Source of the DNA: Periplaneta americana
Lineage: Eukaryota > Arthropoda > Insecta > Blattodea > Blattidae
DNA length: 64,000 bases
Direction: 5' to 3'
Assembly: GCF_040183065.1 (NCBI RefSeq)
Contig: NC_091124.1
Location: 69,635,001 to 69,699,000 of the forward strand
In this document: piece after piece, positions 10,987 to 64,000 of the stretch
Position numbering within the stretch: position 1 is the stretch's first letter
Layout of the letters: every line of letters starts with the position of its first letter
The notes under the pieces: generated by a model
What the model was told of the DNA's origin: nothing
Database searches by the model: none
The model's input: only the letters and a program-made list of their open reading frames with translations
Position numbers and translations under genes: made by a program

Positions 10987-11800
10987 GAAAATGCTTGACA
11001 CAGTGATAGAAATTTTAGTTGCACCCTAACTACATCGTCTGCTTCTTTATTTCCACCACTCTTTAAAAAAAAATTATCTTTCTGCATTGTTACGTAAATT
11101 AATTTAAATTTCATGTAATTATTTAGACGAAAACAGCTACTAGGTAATGACAAAATTATACAGGTGATGTTAATTTTCTAAAGGCGGGACTTTTTGGGTT
11201 CACATGATTAACTCAAAAACCTTGGGCAATGGAAACATTTTGTAAACAAATCTAAAACAGTGCGAAGATTTCTATAAGAAGCAACTGTTCTTTCTCTTGT
11301 AACAGACAAATGTAGTGTCGTGAGTCCTTGGCCAAAAGCAAAAACTCTCCTTTAACTTGTCATAACTTGGAAACCATTAAAGATTCTGAGTAGCAACCAC
11401 TTCTAAAAATAATTTCCATTCTTTTTCAAATTTCTCTCACTTGAACTCCCATTTAAAGTGATAAATAAGAAAGTTTGCCGCTTATCAACTTTTTAACTTA
11501 TGACACATACATGCACCTTGTTTTATAGTGGTTCACATTGCACTTTCTTATATACATGTACACCTATATTTCAATAGTTTCATTAACGTATTCATTTGGC
11601 ATGTCTAATCTGAAGATAACTCAATCGAGTCAAAAATGTTCATATCTTAATTTTAAAATGTGTACAAATAACTTTGTTATAGATAAGCATAGATGGACCC
11701 TTGTATTTAACTTAATAACATTATAACTTATTGGATATCCATTATGGCTTTTAAATTTCCAAGTAAGTTAGTTTCATATCTGCTGAATTGTTGTAACAGT
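10987..11800. other. intron 3 sequence, nothing recognised
   Basis: AT-rich intron sequence without a supported gene or repeat; the short open frames here carry no recognisable motif. Confidence 0.4.
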
Positions 11801-55434: not shown

Positions 55435-55690
55435 TGGGTTACATCAGCTGCTAGTTTATGCAGATGACATGAATAAACCCCGAAAAAACGAAGTATATGA
55501 ATATGTCTCGTGACCAGAACATAGTACGAAATGGAAATATAAAAATTGGAAATTTATCCTTTGAAAAGGTGGAACAATTCAAGTACCTTGGAGCAACAGA
55601 AACAAATATGAATTACATTCGAGAGGAAATTAAACGCAGAATAAATATGGGAAATGCCAGCTACTATTCGGTTGAGAAGCTTCCAACATC
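55435..55690 (+). mobile_element. LINE (family A) 5' fragment
   Basis: Starts GGGTTACATCAGCTGCTAGT (the same point as at 63450), has a deletion after the motif C region, then [20 protein letters not shown] and QFKYLGATETNMNYIREEIK. It ends abruptly near TTCCAACATCC. Confidence 0.82.
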
Positions 55691-55714
55691 CATTGTTTCT
55701 TACTTATAGCTTTC

Positions 55715-56260
55715 AAGGAATTCGGAGGTTCATTGCCGCCCTCACATAAGCCCTCCATCGATGTCTATTCTAAGCAAGACTAATCCAGTCTCTACAATCA
55801 TATCCCACCTCCCTCAAATCCATTTTAATATTATCCTCCCATCTACGTCTTGGCCTCTCCAAAGGTATTTTTCCCTCCGGCCTCCCAACTATCACTCTAT
55901 ATGCATTTCTGGATTCGCCCATACGTGCTACATGCCCTGCCCATCTCAAACGTCTCTATTTAATATTGAAGAATACAATGCGTGCAGTTCCTGTAATTTC
56001 ATACATCTTAGCCCCATATATTTTCTTAAGCACCTTATTCTCGAACACTCTTAACCTCTGTTCCTCTCTCAAAGTGAGAGTCCAAATTTCACAACCATAC
56101 AGAACAACCGGTAATATAACTTGTTTTATAAATTCTAACTTTCAGTATGTTTTGAGAGCAGACAGGATGCGTTTAATTTAATTTAATTTAATTTAATTTA
56201 ATTTTCTCCCGAGTATCATTTATATTTGTTACTGTTGCTCCAAGATATTTGCACTTTTCT
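55715..56260 (-). mobile_element. LINE (family A) copy, minus strand
   Basis: Minus-strand copy covering the 3' end (AATTCGGAGGTTCATTGCCG on the plus strand) to the KYLGATVTN region, with an internal deletion near 55965. A (TTTAA)n expansion lies at 56165-56203. It is tail-to-tail with the plus-strand fragment on its left. Confidence 0.85.
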
Positions 56261-57701: not shown

Positions 57702-58910
<1,209 letters not shown>

Positions 58911-58948
58911 ATTTCAAAGGCATATTGGTTCCGTTAAGTTCAATGTTA

Positions 58949-59126
58949 ATTGAAAAATGAGTTCTATTCAGTCAATACTTAACATAAACACAATAAAACA
59001 TGTTATAATAACATTTACACAGATTTTAAAAACAAACGTTTTCGCCAATTTTGATTGGCATTTTCAGGTCGTGTAGGTCGAATGGAACATGTTATAAAAA
59101 GTGAACACTTGGTATATGACGTTAAA
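58949..59126 (-). repeat. Penelope-like element terminal repeat, left copy
   Basis: Inverted partner of 60783-60960, 177 of 178 positions identical. Contains the hammerhead-like segment on the minus strand, with core CTGAAAA at 59061-59067. Confidence 0.95.
59039..59067 (-). ncRNA. hammerhead-like core, altered
   Basis: On the minus strand CTGAAAA is followed by a TGCCAAT/ATTGGC hairpin and GAAAA. The hammerhead consensus is CUGANGA, stem II, GAAA; here the second G of the core is A, the position known as G8, needed for catalysis. It is the only base differing from the right copy. Confidence 0.6.
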
Positions 59127-59535
59127 AACCAAAGTTACAACTGTAATATCACTTAAAAACAGAGAATAGAATATAGCAAAAAGCCTCCACGATGTGTGTA
59201 GAATCACTGTGTTGATAAAGGCGTGTGTGAACCAAGGAAACAGCAAAACTCTTCTGTCATTGCAGATACAGTTTTCAAGATAGATTTGAAGATGCTACGA
59301 ACAGGTCGGTCGTGTGGCCGTTATGGAGAGCAGGAAAAATCCTGTAAATTGTAAGGTTACAATGAAAGAATATTTAGAAGCATTTAAGTATTATTTAAAT
59401 CTTCTAAAACAATACTTACAAAAAATGGAAGAACGTCTTGAAATCCATGAGGACGGCGACACGACTGATCTTTACATCAAGTGGTAGCGTATGACGAAAA
59501 CTGTATACGTTGCACGACTAGTGGATGAATGACCG

Positions 59536-59895
59536 TTACTTGCGTGTGATTTTAAACAGCGGGTTATTTGAATTTGGGTATTGTTCGTTAAGGAGCGGGC
59601 TATCATTATTATTAGAAAAGGTGGTAATATATAGTTCCTCCGCAGCATTCATATAATGATGATTGTTAATAGTCTTTAAGACCTGAAGGGCTTCTTCTAT
59701 GCCAGTAAGTTCGTGATTAAGGGAAATGAGATGCGTGGCAAACTTTGATTTATTCCTATTGAATTTGAAGTCAGAGACGTGCTCTTTGTAACGCGTGCGA
59801 GTTTGGCCAACGTATTTACTGGCACAGCTTTTACATTGTAATAGATAGATACCGCTATTGGCAAATTTATTGTAATTTTGAATGTTATTGGGAAT
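59536..59895 (-). pseudogene. GIY-YIG endonuclease domain of the Penelope-like element
   Basis: Minus-strand frame: NSGIYLLQCKSCASKYVGQT gives the GIY and YVG motifs, then RTRYKEHVSDFKFNRN (catalytic Arg region), SKFATHLISLNHEL, and a conserved AAEELYITTFSNNN block (catalytic Glu), ending ITRK and a stop at 59536. Family knowledge: this nuclease cuts target DNA for Penelope-type insertion. It is out of frame with the reverse transcriptase: at least two shifts lie between them, near 59900 and 60050, so the polyprotein is broken. The order RT then GIY-YIG is the normal one for Penelope-like elements. Confidence 0.88.
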
Positions 59896-60028
59896 TATAT
59901 TATTAAGTTTGTACGGAATGCTACGTTAATTTGTTCTTTTCTAAAAAGGTTACCTAATTTGTATGACACATTACCGAAAAATGTCATGGGTTTCCAGTGG
60001 GTGGTTTTAGTCTTTTTGACAGAACTTA

Positions 60029-60808
60029 TTAAAGTGCTATTAGTTTGGTTTCTGCTTTAAATTTATTTAAGCGTTTTCTTATCAAATTGTTAATTAAATT
60101 CTTATTAAAGCCATTGATTTGTGCTAAATTTACAATGTATCTATATTCAGCCTGATAATTGTTTCTGTTTAGGGGGACTTTGAGCAACCGATCAACTAGA
60201 AAACGGAAATTACTAATCTTATGTGTGTAGGGGTGATTGGAATCAAATTGGATGGAATGACTGGTGGTTGTAGGTTTCCTATAAATATTATAACAAACAG
60301 TGGAGCCTCGAATGGTTATGTTCAAATCCAAAAAGTTTATAGATCTAATATGTTCTGTCTCACAAGTAAATTTTAAATTAGGATGCAGGTTATTAAAACT
60401 TTTGAGAACATCTTCGTGGATTGCACTACTACTATTGTAAAGTATGAGGGTATCATCTACGTAACGGGCATAAAAGAGTATGTTATACTGAGTAGTTAAC
60501 TTGGGGACTTGTTTACATTCCAAACTTTGTAAGAACACTTCCGAAAGGAGACCAGATAGGGGATCGCCCATGGCTAAGCCTTTAGTTTGTTGAAAAATTT
60601 TGTCATTGAAAGAAAAATAATTCTGTTTTAAGGAAACGGAAAGTAAGTTGGCAATTTGTTCTATGATGTTGTGATCTATGTTCTTCGATCTTAATTTATC
60701 TTTTACGATATCTATGGTTTCCTTAATGGGAATATTGGAATATAGGTTTTCAATGTCCAAAGATATTAATTTGGTATTCTTGTTTAACGTCATATACCAA
60801 GTGTTCAC
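60029..60808 (-). CDS. Penelope-like reverse transcriptase (truncated)
   Basis: A 259-codon frame with the family's RT blocks: KLISLDIENLYSNIP (motif A Asp), QQTKGLAMGDPLSGLLSEVF (motif B), LFYARYVDDTLILYN (motif C, YVDD), SINFLDLNITIRGSTVCYNI, YRKPTTTSHSIQFDSNHP and the thumb-side HKISNFRFLVDRLLKVPL. The N-terminal fingers region is missing: its first codons lie inside the right inverted repeat. The frame ends by a shift near 60050 before the GIY-YIG domain. The start at 60808 is simply the first ATG; the true protein would begin further upstream. Likely inactive on its own. Confidence 0.9.
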   Translation of the reverse strand: MNTWYMTLNKNTKLISLDIENLYSNIPIKETIDIVKDKLRSKNIDHNIIEQIANLLSVSLKQNYFSFNDKIFQQTKGLAMGDPLSGLLSEVFLQSLECKQVPKLTTQYNILFYARYVDDTLILYNSSSAIHEDVLKSFNNLHPNLKFTCETEHIRSINFLDLNITIRGSTVCYNIYRKPTTTSHSIQFDSNHPYTHKISNFRFLVDRLLKVPLNRNNYQAEYRYIVNLAQINGFNKNLINNLIRKRLNKFKAETKLIAL

Positions 60809-60960
60809 TTTTTATAACATGTTCCATTCGACCTACACGACCTGAAGATGCCAATCAAAATTGGCGAAAACGTTTGTTTTTAAAATCTGTGTAAATGTTA
60901 TTATAACATGTTTTATTGTGTTTATGTTAAGTATTGACTGAATAGAACTCATTTTTCAAT
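60783..60960 (+). repeat. Penelope-like element terminal repeat, right copy
   Basis: Inverted partner of 58949-59126, one mismatch in 178 bp. Carries the intact hammerhead-like core. Confidence 0.95.
60842..60870 (+). ncRNA. hammerhead-ribozyme-like core
   Basis: CTGAAGA (CUGANGA core), then stem II TGCCAAT with loop CAAA and ATTGGC, then GAAAA. Hammerhead motifs are known in the terminal repeats of Penelope-like elements. Stems I and III were not worked out with confidence and the extra A after GAAA is unusual, so activity is unproven. Confidence 0.6.
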
Positions 60961-60973
60961 TATCATTAACATA

Positions 60974-61460
60974 GCTAATCCGGCAAGGGCCGTGGATTTG
61001 TCAAGTTGTAACGAAAATTTCGTTTAACTGATACGGGAAGTCATATTTTTTTACGTCTTTTCATAGATTCTGGATTTGATTATGCAGTGTTATTTGATAA
61101 GGACACACTGGAAATCAAGTTTGCAGTTTTCTCGTCCACCATGCACTTCACTACCTTCACTAATAGTGGTTTCATAAGAGTTTCAGCAAGGGTGAGGTTT
61201 ACCACCAAGAGTCTGGTCATGACTAACCAAGTACGACGTTTTCAGTACTTTCTCGTTGTTTGTTTTTACACGAGGTAAAATTTTGTCTCAACTGCATGGA
61301 GTTCGTCACTTTTTCTTTCGAAGTAGTCTGCAGTTTTATTTGTGAATTTTTTAATTGAGAAACGTCTAAGCTTGGCAGTGAACATAGAACTATTGGGAAA
61401 AACTTTGTTACAGATCACACACTGTGGACGTTCATCAACTAACTCAGTGAATGCCATATC
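60974..61460 (-). pseudogene. hAT transposase N-terminal part with BED zinc finger
   Basis: Minus-strand start MAFTELVDERPQCVICNKVF at 61459, then NSSMFTAKLRRFSIKKFTNK. The CVIC pair and following Phe/Lys residues form a BED-type zinc finger; the usual HxxxxH part looks degraded. Downstream pieces in other frames read SFSLQLDKSTALAGLAMLM (first catalytic Asp region, near 61000), where the Penelope-like element inserted. Confidence 0.78.
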
Positions 61461-61502
61461 CAAATATAAATCACAATGAAATATGAACAGTTGTATGAAC
61501 AC

Positions 61503-62912
61503 TAATAAGTAGTGTAGTGTTCATACAAATGTAACATATCACCTTTAATGTATTTCATAAAATCAATGAACACCGTATTGTTGACCTAACATGTGTGTTT
61601 TATCATTAAATATAATCACAATATTTTCGTTTGTTACTTTCAATACCTCTACACTAGGCATCGTAGACTCTGACAAGGAAAGGGTTTCGGCTCGAACAGG
61701 AATTTCGTATCCACAATTTTTATACAGGCCCATCTTTACATCCCTGTAAAGCTCCCAAAAGCATTCGTTTGTGTAATGTGTGGTTTGTCTGTTAGAGCAC
61801 TGTACAAGTTGAAGGGTGGGGAGAGCACTGCACAAGTTAAGGGAATGGGACACCTTACCCGTAAGCCTAGCCTAACTAGAAGCTAGTGCGAGTGGTAAAA
61901 TGTCTAAAACCCATTTAAGAACATTTTTCTCCAACGTTCTGTCTGAAAAATATTGCAGCTAATCAAAAATGTAGACTGTTGTGTGATTCATTGAATACGC
62001 ACACGGACACAACCTTAATAAATGAATAATTCTAAGCTTAGGAAATGGAATGTATGATCATTCCACCTAAAAAAAAACTAAATATATCCAGCCTCTGGAT
62101 ATATATTTCCTTAGACAATACAAAATATATGCTCGGAGGATAACAGATTGCATAAGGACTCTTGCTGAGAATCCAGAACTTAACTTGGGAAATCGAGTGT
62201 TTATAATGAAAATGCAATCTGTTATTCATAATCAGTTGTCTGCTCCAGTGTACCGCCCTATGCTTCAATATTCCTGGCAATCAACTGGTTACGTGAATCC
62301 TGAACAAGTCTCGGACTTCAAAAATGTAATTCAGATAGCATTTTATTTTTGAGCACTGGAGTGTGGTTCAGAAGATCGTTCAGGCGTTGCTTCTGCGTGT
62401 TGTGCTTATTGCTCTGCTCCATGCTATTTCAGGCATTTTATAGAGAATCCTCATGTACATTTTTAAAGAAATGTATGACCAATACCAACCAAACGGAGAG
62501 TTACACAAATGAATGCTTTTATGGTCTTCATCACCATTGTGAGGTAAGTCTCTGTACAAATTTTTAACCAAAAATTCCTGTTCGAGCCGAAACCCTTCCC
62601 TTGTGAGACAGGATCATGTTCAACATATTCCGAACTCAATTCCCCGGAATTCACACTATCTTCTTTGAAAGTAAGGTTATAGCTGTTATCATCTCCCTTT
62701 GACTGGGCACTTGTTGATGGCTAATGACTCTTCGGTCTTAGGGAGCCCGTCTAAAGCCACAGTTCCGGTTCAACGAAAGTTTAGCTAACACATCTGCTAT
62801 AAAATTAGCAGGTATGCAATATATATATTTTTTGAGGTAACGTAACAGTCAATAGATTGTAGATTTCACGTACCACGAATAACAAACGCTGCCTGCCCAG
62901 TACACTTACTGG
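61503..62912. other. 5' region of hAT element with inverted repeats
   Basis: A 12-bp-arm hairpin at 61492-61527 (TGTATGAACACT...AGTGTTCATACA). A ~110-bp repeat at about 61680-61800 recurs inverted at about 62480-62610 (shared GGGTTTCGGCTCGAACAGG and AAGCATTC). Confidence 0.55.
62115..62352 (+). other. exon-like open frame of unknown origin
   Basis: After an acceptor-like TATTTCCTTAG, a frame with no ATG start encodes about 78 residues: QYKIYARRITDCIRTLAENP, LNLGNRVFIMKMQSVIHNQL, SAPVYRPMLQYSWQSTGYVN, then a stop at 62350. The composition is protein-like and there are no stops, but I do not recognise it. It is on the strand opposite the hAT transposase and could be a captured host exon or part of another transposon. 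Confidence 0.4.
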
Positions 62913-63104
62913 TTTTTAAGGAACCCGGAGGTTCATTGCCGCCCTCACATAAGCCCGCCATTGGTCCCTCTTCTGAGCAAGATTAATCCAGTCTCTACCA
63001 TCATATCCCACCTCCCTCAAATCCATTTTAATATTATCTTCCCATCTACGTCTCGGCCTCCACAGAGGTCTTTTTCCCTCCGGCCTCCCATCTAACACTC
63101 TATA
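62913..63104 (-). mobile_element. LINE (family A) 3' fragment
   Basis: Minus-strand MLDGRPEGKRPLWRPRRRWE, MDLREVGYDGRDWINLAQ and RAYVRAAMNLRVP, the last ~60 residues of the family-A polyprotein. It lies inside the hAT element and truncates near CACTCTATATA. Confidence 0.85.
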
Positions 63105-64000
63105 TAAAAATAAAATAAATTTCGAGAATCACTGAGTACTTGGCAAGCAAGAAAGATCGAGATAATTCCAGTGACGAGTAGATCTAATATTAATGCTTCC
63201 ATGTAGCAAGAAGAGCGCAAACTACTTTCTCAGAAAGTATTTTTCGCTTGATGGAAGTAGTTTCCGTTTTTCCCGCTAGAGACTAGATGGAATTAGCAAT
63301 TTTTGTCATCTTCATAACTTCCGCGGACGGAGCCCCTGAGAATCATTCGGGGAGCCCTAAGGGCTCCGCGGAGCACGCTTTGGGAACCGCTGCTCTAGAG
63401 TATGCCATTAGGAAAGTCCAGGATAACAGAGAGGGTTTGGAATTAAACGGGTTACATCACCTGCTTGTCTATGCGGATGACGTGAATATATTAGGAGAAA
63501 ATCCACAAACGATTAGGAAAAACACGGGAATTTTACTTGAAGCAAGTTTGGAAGTAAATCCCGAAACGACAAAGTATATGATTATGTCTCGTGACCAGAA
63601 TATTGTACGAAATGGAAATATAACAATTTGAAATTTATCTTTTGAAGAGTTGGAAAAATTCAAATACCTGGGAGCAACAGTAACAAATATAAATGATACT
63701 CGGGAGGAAATTAAACGCAGAATAAATATGGGAAATGCCTGTTATTATTCGGTTGGGAAAATTTTATCATCCAGTCTTCTATCAAAAAATCTGAAAGTTA
63801 GAATTTATAAAACAGTTATATTACCGGTTGTTCTTTATGGTTGTGAAACTTGGACTCTCACTTTGAGAGAGGAACTTAGGTTAAGGGTGTTTGAGAATAA
63901 GATGCTTAGGAAAATATTTGGGGCTAAGAGGGATAAAGTTACAGGAGAATGCAGAAAGTTACACAACACAGAACTGCACGCATTGTATTCTCCAGAAATG

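What the first reader, a model, noticed from the sequence alone, without database searches (positions are those of the whole stretch)
60783..60960. Hammerhead-like ribozyme core in the Penelope-like terminal repeats, with the only inter-repeat difference in the core
The right repeat has CTGAAGA, a TGCCAAT/ATTGGC stem and GAAAA in hammerhead order. The left repeat (59039-59067) is identical except that the core reads CTGAAAA. Over 178 bp the two repeats differ at one position only, and it falls on the base known as G8 of the hammerhead core. Such motifs are known in Penelope-like terminal repeats; this pair may show one working and one dead copy within one element. Stems I and III are not assigned.
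Basis: partly seen in the sequence, partly recalled or inferred. Interest (0 to 1): 0.82.

Follow-up and report, generated by a model that had tools for sequence, protein, structure and literature searches.

The report
Hammerhead ribozymes in inverted Penelope repeats
Both ends of a broken Penelope-type jumping gene carry a small RNA motif that looks able to cut RNA, of a kind already known from such elements, and one of the two copies has probably lost its activity by an ordinary random mutation.

Summary
In detail: two 179-bp repeats differ at one base, G8 of a hammerhead core. The repeats are inverted. The coding strand is minus, so the sense copy is the left one, with G8A; the intact core is antisense. 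No one transcript holds both in active polarity. The motif is a Penelope-like minimal hammerhead, not a canonical one. A covariance model built without this family finds both copies (32.4 and 28.9 bits) and a third, decayed motif (30.9); the next hit has 12.9. Over 22 sequences, stem II, inner stem I and a palindromic stem III covary. Stem III can form only between two motifs. One relative co-folds as an exact double hammerhead, one nearly so; eight of ten, the window copies included, do not. Rfam reports no hammerhead. G8A is private decay: 681 motif copies lie within 3 mismatches, and 2 otherwise exact ones have G8A. Inverted arms, tail and target duplication match published Penelope architecture. 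Less expected is an extra U after A9: 12,207 pattern matches, against 187 with another base and 10 without. Cleavage is untested.

The parts
60783..60961 (+). Right inverted pLTR arm, antisense to the element's coding strand; intact hammerhead core; no tail
58948..59126 (-). Left pLTR arm, sense with RT/EN; hammerhead core with G8A
60842..60848 (+). Core strand C3-A9 (CTGAAGA), right copy; G8 = 60847
60849..60849 (+). Extra U between A9 and stem II
60850..60865 (+). Stem II, 60850-60855 with 60860-60865, loop CAAA
60866..60868 (+). G12 A13 A14
60869..60874 (+). Palindrome AACGTT = stem III, usable only between two copies
   Evidence: covariation; co-folds do not show it cleanly for the window copy
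60875..60876 (+). Predicted cleavage site, after U17 at 60875
   Evidence: inferred from the motif layout
60834..60893 (+). Stem I: 60839-60841 with 60876-60878 (one G-U), distal UACAC 60834-60838 with GUGUA 60889-60893
   Evidence: inner three pairs; distal part
59034..59067 (-). Left motif from C3 (59067) to H17 (59034); mutated G8 at 59062
58911..58947 (-). 37-nt tail on the left arm only; matches the ORF start of relative L044 but for one base
58899..58910 (.). Target-site duplication, left copy, ATCATTAACATA
60962..60973 (.). Target-site duplication, right copy
60029..60811 (-). 5'-truncated Penelope-like reverse transcriptase (open frame; the element part starts near 60782)
59536..59925 (-). 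GIY-YIG-like endonuclease part, in a separate frame from the RT
   Evidence: Pfam only weak, E 0.064, below cut-off
11602..11648 (+). Third, decayed motif of another repeat family, G12 lost

Best explanation
The repeats are the two head-to-head pLTR arms of a 5'-truncated Penelope-like retroelement. Each carries a minimal hammerhead in type I order: stem I, CUGANGA, an extra U, stem II, GAA, a six-base palindrome ending in U16.1, H17, stem I. The palindrome cannot fold as a stem on itself; two copies pair through it, so that each core cuts the other's UH site. In intact tandem elements of this family this would cut pLTR RNA about 110 nt before the ATG that lies in the tail. The right copy keeps the family core. 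The left, the only one in sense, took a private G-to-A at G8 and is probably inactive. Shown: motif, covariation, orientation, private status of the mutation. Inferred: cleavage, action as dimers, loss of activity.
For: The model built without family A finds both copies, E 3e-6 and 2.9e-5 (rough calibration). Pairing: 85.4% of cells standard against 62.7% shuffled; covariation 0.605 against 0.207, 0 of 500 shuffles; at most 0.100 when slid. Motif in sense in 8 of 8 long relatives and, with a looser pattern, in 13 of 17 3' windows. Exact double-hammerhead co-fold for L046; L051 the same with one extra A14-U17 pair. G8A in 2 otherwise exact copies genome-wide, against 681 copies within 3 mismatches. 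Published: PAc hammerhead, where G8C and C3G abolish cleavage (PMC11167929, passages); minimal helix-III-less type I hammerheads in PLEs that may cleave as dimers (PMC7761336, passages).
Against: No activity test. Rfam reports no hammerhead in the window or in 4 relatives; RF00163 over the genome gives none, though its control rang nowhere. Two of the five measures do not exceed shuffles. Stem I of the window family is weak (one G-U, then a mismatch), and its RNA has competing pairings in single and dimer folds; 6 of the 8 co-folded relatives are not clean double hammerheads either. 4 of 17 3' windows and 11 of 12 5' windows lack the motif. PAc RNA was cut only with protein present, its cleavage was not needed for insertion in vitro, and no RNA-seq reads ended at its cut site. 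A passage says that an extra core nucleotide in a viroid hammerhead goes with weak activity (PMC11014351).
Confidence: 0.86

Rival explanations
1. The motif is conserved for another role, such as a protein-binding hairpin or a short upstream ORF starting at the conserved AUG (A9-U-G), and does not cut RNA.
For: The AUG is nearly fixed. In PAc the ORF starts at this place. No cleavage was shown here, and most co-folds are not clean.
Against: The AUG opens only 3 to 11 codons in the window copy and in one sequence each of families B, C and D (read). Covarying stem I, the GAAA and the palindrome are not explained by a start codon. PAc RNA is cut and depends on C3 and G8.
Confidence: 0.11
2. The left/right difference is selected: the sense copy is silenced to protect the element's RNA.
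For: The only difference lies in the core of the sense copy.
Against: The element is truncated; the variant is nearly private; 3 other arms have single core substitutions (C3, U4, G12), at a rate like the rest of the repeat.
Confidence: 0.02
3. Chance resemblance to a hammerhead in an AT-rich repeat.
For: The loose pattern is expected 2.24 times in the window.
Against: 12,207 genome matches to the stricter pattern with 0 backward-pattern control matches; covariation; model hits.
Confidence: 0.01

Closest known systems
Minimal type I hammerheads of Penelope-like elements (Cervera and de la Pena 2014; Lunse et al. 2017; neither paper is held; seen as citations and in passages of reviews; the figure of about 150,000 variants is recalled)
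   Same: pLTR position, type I order, no proper stem III, likely action as dimers
   Different: Members from one large genome; Rfam does not report them; extra U after A9 near-invariant (whether those papers show it could not be checked)
PAc (Poseidon of Anolis carolinensis), PMC11167929 (passages)
   Same: pLTR hammerhead with C3 and G8 before an AUG at the start of stem II; internal RT start leaves a tail
   Different: In PAc this AUG starts the ORF; here it opens only a few codons and the long ORF starts further down
Penelope of Adineta vaga, PMC3846280 (passages)
   Same: Inverted pLTR arms, most often head to head, 31-bp tail optionally on one arm, 8-10 bp TSDs
   Different: No hammerhead named in that text (0 occurrences); here a 37-nt tail and a 12-bp TSD
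Axolotl and newt type I hammerheads, PMC7229834 (passages)
   Same: Very weak helix III with a palindromic loop, much better cleavage as dimers
   Different: In satellite-like retrozymes, not PLE pLTRs
Viroid hammerhead with an extra core nucleotide (title in the reference list of PMC6155905; one passage of PMC11014351; that it is CChMVd with an A after A9 is recalled)
   Same: Extra nucleotide in the core
   Different: Viroid; the passage says the extra base goes with weak activity

Membership tests
Canonical hammerhead ribozyme, type I | CUGANGA and GAAA core strands | tested here: met
   Right copy meets it; left copy lacks G8
Canonical hammerhead ribozyme, type I | Stem II covaries | tested here: met
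Canonical hammerhead ribozyme, type I | Stem I next to the cleavage site covaries | tested here: met
   Inner 3 pairs: 65 of 66 cells standard, changes on both sides at each; outer 3 pairs fail in 36 of 66 cells. Window copy: 3 pairs, one of them G-U
Canonical hammerhead ribozyme, type I | Stem III within one molecule | tested here: not met
   Only a six-base palindrome, such as AACGTT, AGCGCT or AATATT; so it is not filed as canonical
Canonical hammerhead ribozyme, type I | A9 directly joined to stem II | tested here: not met
   Extra U in 22 of 22 rows; 12,207 U, 187 other base, 10 no insert
Canonical hammerhead ribozyme, type I | Match to Rfam hammerhead models (a check, not a definition) | tested here: not met
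   inconclusive since its control rang nowhere; RF00008 over the genome did not complete
Canonical hammerhead ribozyme, type I | Self-cleavage at UH | not testable with these tools
   bench test
PLE minimal dimeric hammerhead variant | Palindromic stem III kept through covariation | tested here: met
   97.0% of cells paired; changes on both sides at 2 of 3 pairs
PLE minimal dimeric hammerhead variant | Dimer folds as a double hammerhead | tested here: inconclusive
   Exact for L046, nearly for L051 (A14-U17 also paired); not clean for the other 8 of 10 sequences, the window copies included
PLE minimal dimeric hammerhead variant | Sits in the pLTR in sense with RT/EN | tested here: met
   in the window true of the left copy only
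PLE minimal dimeric hammerhead variant | Cleaves RNA as a dimer | not testable with these tools
   bench test
Penelope-like element | RT domain | tested here: met
   RVT_1 E 4.7e-12; that it is of the Penelope kind rests on the layout, no RT tree was made
Penelope-like element | GIY-YIG endonuclease | tested here: inconclusive
   Pfam E 0.064, below cut-off; GIY..YVG read by eye
Penelope-like element | pLTRs, tail and TSD | tested here: met

The most novel reading that the evidence does not exclude
The near-invariant U between A9 and stem II is a functional part of a distinct hammerhead core used by Penelope-like elements, kept while stem II and stem I change completely and although its AUG starts no long ORF in the families examined.
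Probability: 0.3. Interest if true: 0.5.

Novelty: new member of a known kind. Interest (0 to 1): 0.3.

Why it matters
[quoted passage not shown] One genome with over 12,000 pattern matches, many stem II versions and many head-to-head insertions could let one test whether cDNA ends pile up at the cleavage site and whether the extra U matters. The window pair itself is an ordinary decayed insertion.

Tried and rejected
Rfam at gathering and at E up to 10: no hammerhead. Viral contigs by pattern: 2 contigs without apparent relation to PLEs (read by eye); by protein: none. Cleavage-site scars: one arm (L018) begins at q88, near the predicted cut after q93 but not on it, with letters shared at the junction; n = 1, not pursued. 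The idea that the repeat length is a fixed pLTR was dropped: in most arms the sequence runs on past q1 into the same stretch, and the window's right arm stops at q1. Single-strand folding energy is not convincing (window copies z -1.69 and -2.01, four relatives from -1.75 to 0.01) and is not used as evidence. A dimer fold with stem III enforced ended without output; unconstrained co-folds were used. The name of the organism was not sought.

Full report
What is there. The window holds a Penelope-like insertion on the minus strand, from 58911 to 60961, between copies of ATCATTAACATA (58899-58910, 60962-60973). It encodes part of a reverse transcriptase (frame 60811-60029, RVT_1 4.7e-12) and, in another frame, a GIY-YIG-like part (59925-59536, weak in Pfam). 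Two inverted arms close it. The left arm is in sense and followed by a 37-nt tail; the right arm is antisense and has no tail. The tail equals the start of the ORF in relative L044 but for one base. Joining the flanks at the duplication gives one minus-strand frame that is open for 50-odd codons across the joint; stops lie further upstream.

The two motifs. Over 179 bp the arms differ at one base, G8. In motif order the right copy reads stem I (GAC), CUGAAGA, U, GCCAAU-CAAA-AUUGGC, GAA, AACGUU, U17, then GUU. Because the arms are inverted, element-sense RNA carries the left, mutated copy in active polarity and the right one only as its complement. Such RNA could also pair arm to arm over 179 bp (inference).

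Is it a hammerhead? I took relatives from the same genome by RT similarity. Eight of eight long loci carry the motif in sense: four (L046, L048, L049, L050) on both sides of the ORF, four (L044, L045, L047, L051) on the 3' side only; L049 has one more, antisense, at its edge. With a looser core pattern 13 of 17 3' windows carry it in sense, two of them (L076, L079) only because the pattern was loosened; 1 of 12 5' windows carries it, perhaps because many of those elements are 5'-truncated. I aligned 22 sequences; second pLTR copies and L045 and L049 were left out before the count as near-duplicates. L075 is misaligned by one base and was kept. Pair counts: 85.4% standard against 62.7% shuffled, covariation 0.605 against 0.207 with 0 of 500 shuffles reaching it, and at most 0.100 when slid. 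Two measures did not exceed the shuffles: pairs with a change on both sides (12; 106 of 500) and further pair types (24; 461 of 500). Stem II pairs in 94.1% of cells, the palindrome in 97.0%, stem I in 72.0%; its three inner pairs hold in 65 of 66 cells and its outer three fail in 36 of 66. Many rows are related, so the shuffles overstate.

Model test. A model from 15 sequences whose RT is 51-56% identical to the window's found the right copy at 32.4 bits, a third motif at 11602 with 30.9 and the left copy at 28.9; the next hit had 12.9. It also found the motif in 11 of 11 family A-like loci given to it and, more weakly (18.4 bits), one of the two viral contigs fetched by pattern. The model has stems I and II only and cannot tell a live copy from a dead one: G8A costs 3.5 bits.

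Numbers in the genome. The 35-base motif occurs 681 times within 3 mismatches, backward control 0. G8 changed in an otherwise exact motif: 4 places, 2 of them G8A, one being the window's. The general pattern CTGANGATG-N7..14-CGAAAACGTT occurs 12,207 times, control 0. With A, C or G for the U: 187, control 1. With no insert: 10, control 0 (this pattern has a slightly shorter length range and excludes G after the first stem base). These counts cover only motifs with this first stem II pair and this palindrome. Among 52 distinct sequences copied from the 100 places listed, stem II averages 3.98 pairs against 1.51 when the inner letters are shuffled, and 28 different inner 3-bp combinations occur.

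Architecture. Of 34 places examined (33 loci and the window), 20 have two arms in reach, 19 of them head to head and 1 (L014) same strand; 14 show one arm. In 19 of 19 head-to-head pairs exactly one arm has the tail (read). These places are the best-scoring matches (40 scored of 1036 candidates), not a random sample. This agrees with Penelope of rotifers (PMC3846280, passages) and with internal start of reverse transcription in PAc (PMC11167929, passages).

How it would work. Two RNAs, or two pLTRs of one tandem RNA, pair through the palindrome; each core then meets the other's UH and stem I. Co-folding gives exactly this for L046, and for L051 with A14 and U17 paired as well, but not cleanly for the window family, whose U-rich strand competes, nor for the other six relatives. 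L051, a close relative, has a four-pair inner stem I (CGAC/GUCG) where the window family has GAC/GUU. Loss of G8 should stop cleavage: G8C does so in PAc, and a review places the 2'-OH of G8 at the leaving oxygen (PMC6155905, passages). G8A itself was not tested in any passage that I read. Against a simple role: PAc RNA was cut only with protein, cleavage was not needed for insertion, and no reads ended at the cut site.

Verdict. A real but known kind of motif, in an ordinary decayed insertion. What deserves a second look is the nearly fixed extra U and the scale of the set, not the G8A.

Noticed in passing
window 11602-11648 (+): A third hammerhead-like motif (30.9 bits, G12 lost) in an old repeat family: 40 matches scored of 431 candidates, one of them the query itself, the others 75-94% identical, three pairs of them inverted neighbours; probably another Penelope pLTR.
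   Followed up: partly
window 58679-58933 and 61266-61520 (-): The insertion splits a minus-strand frame that by eye resembles a hAT/SCAND3-like transposase (label recalled; Pfam gave nothing for 58679-58933 and only a zinc-finger hit below cut-off for 61266-61520).
   Followed up: partly
window 55474-56259 and 62914-63946: Two diverged copies (86-92%) of another repeat, some parts direct and some inverted; by eye one carries an RT fragment.
   Followed up: no
G000: The base between A9 and stem II is U in 12,207 pattern matches, another base in 187 and absent in 10.
   Followed up: partly
window 61669-61727 and 62550-62608: A 59-nt inverted repeat (80% complementary) to the right of the element.
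   Followed up: no
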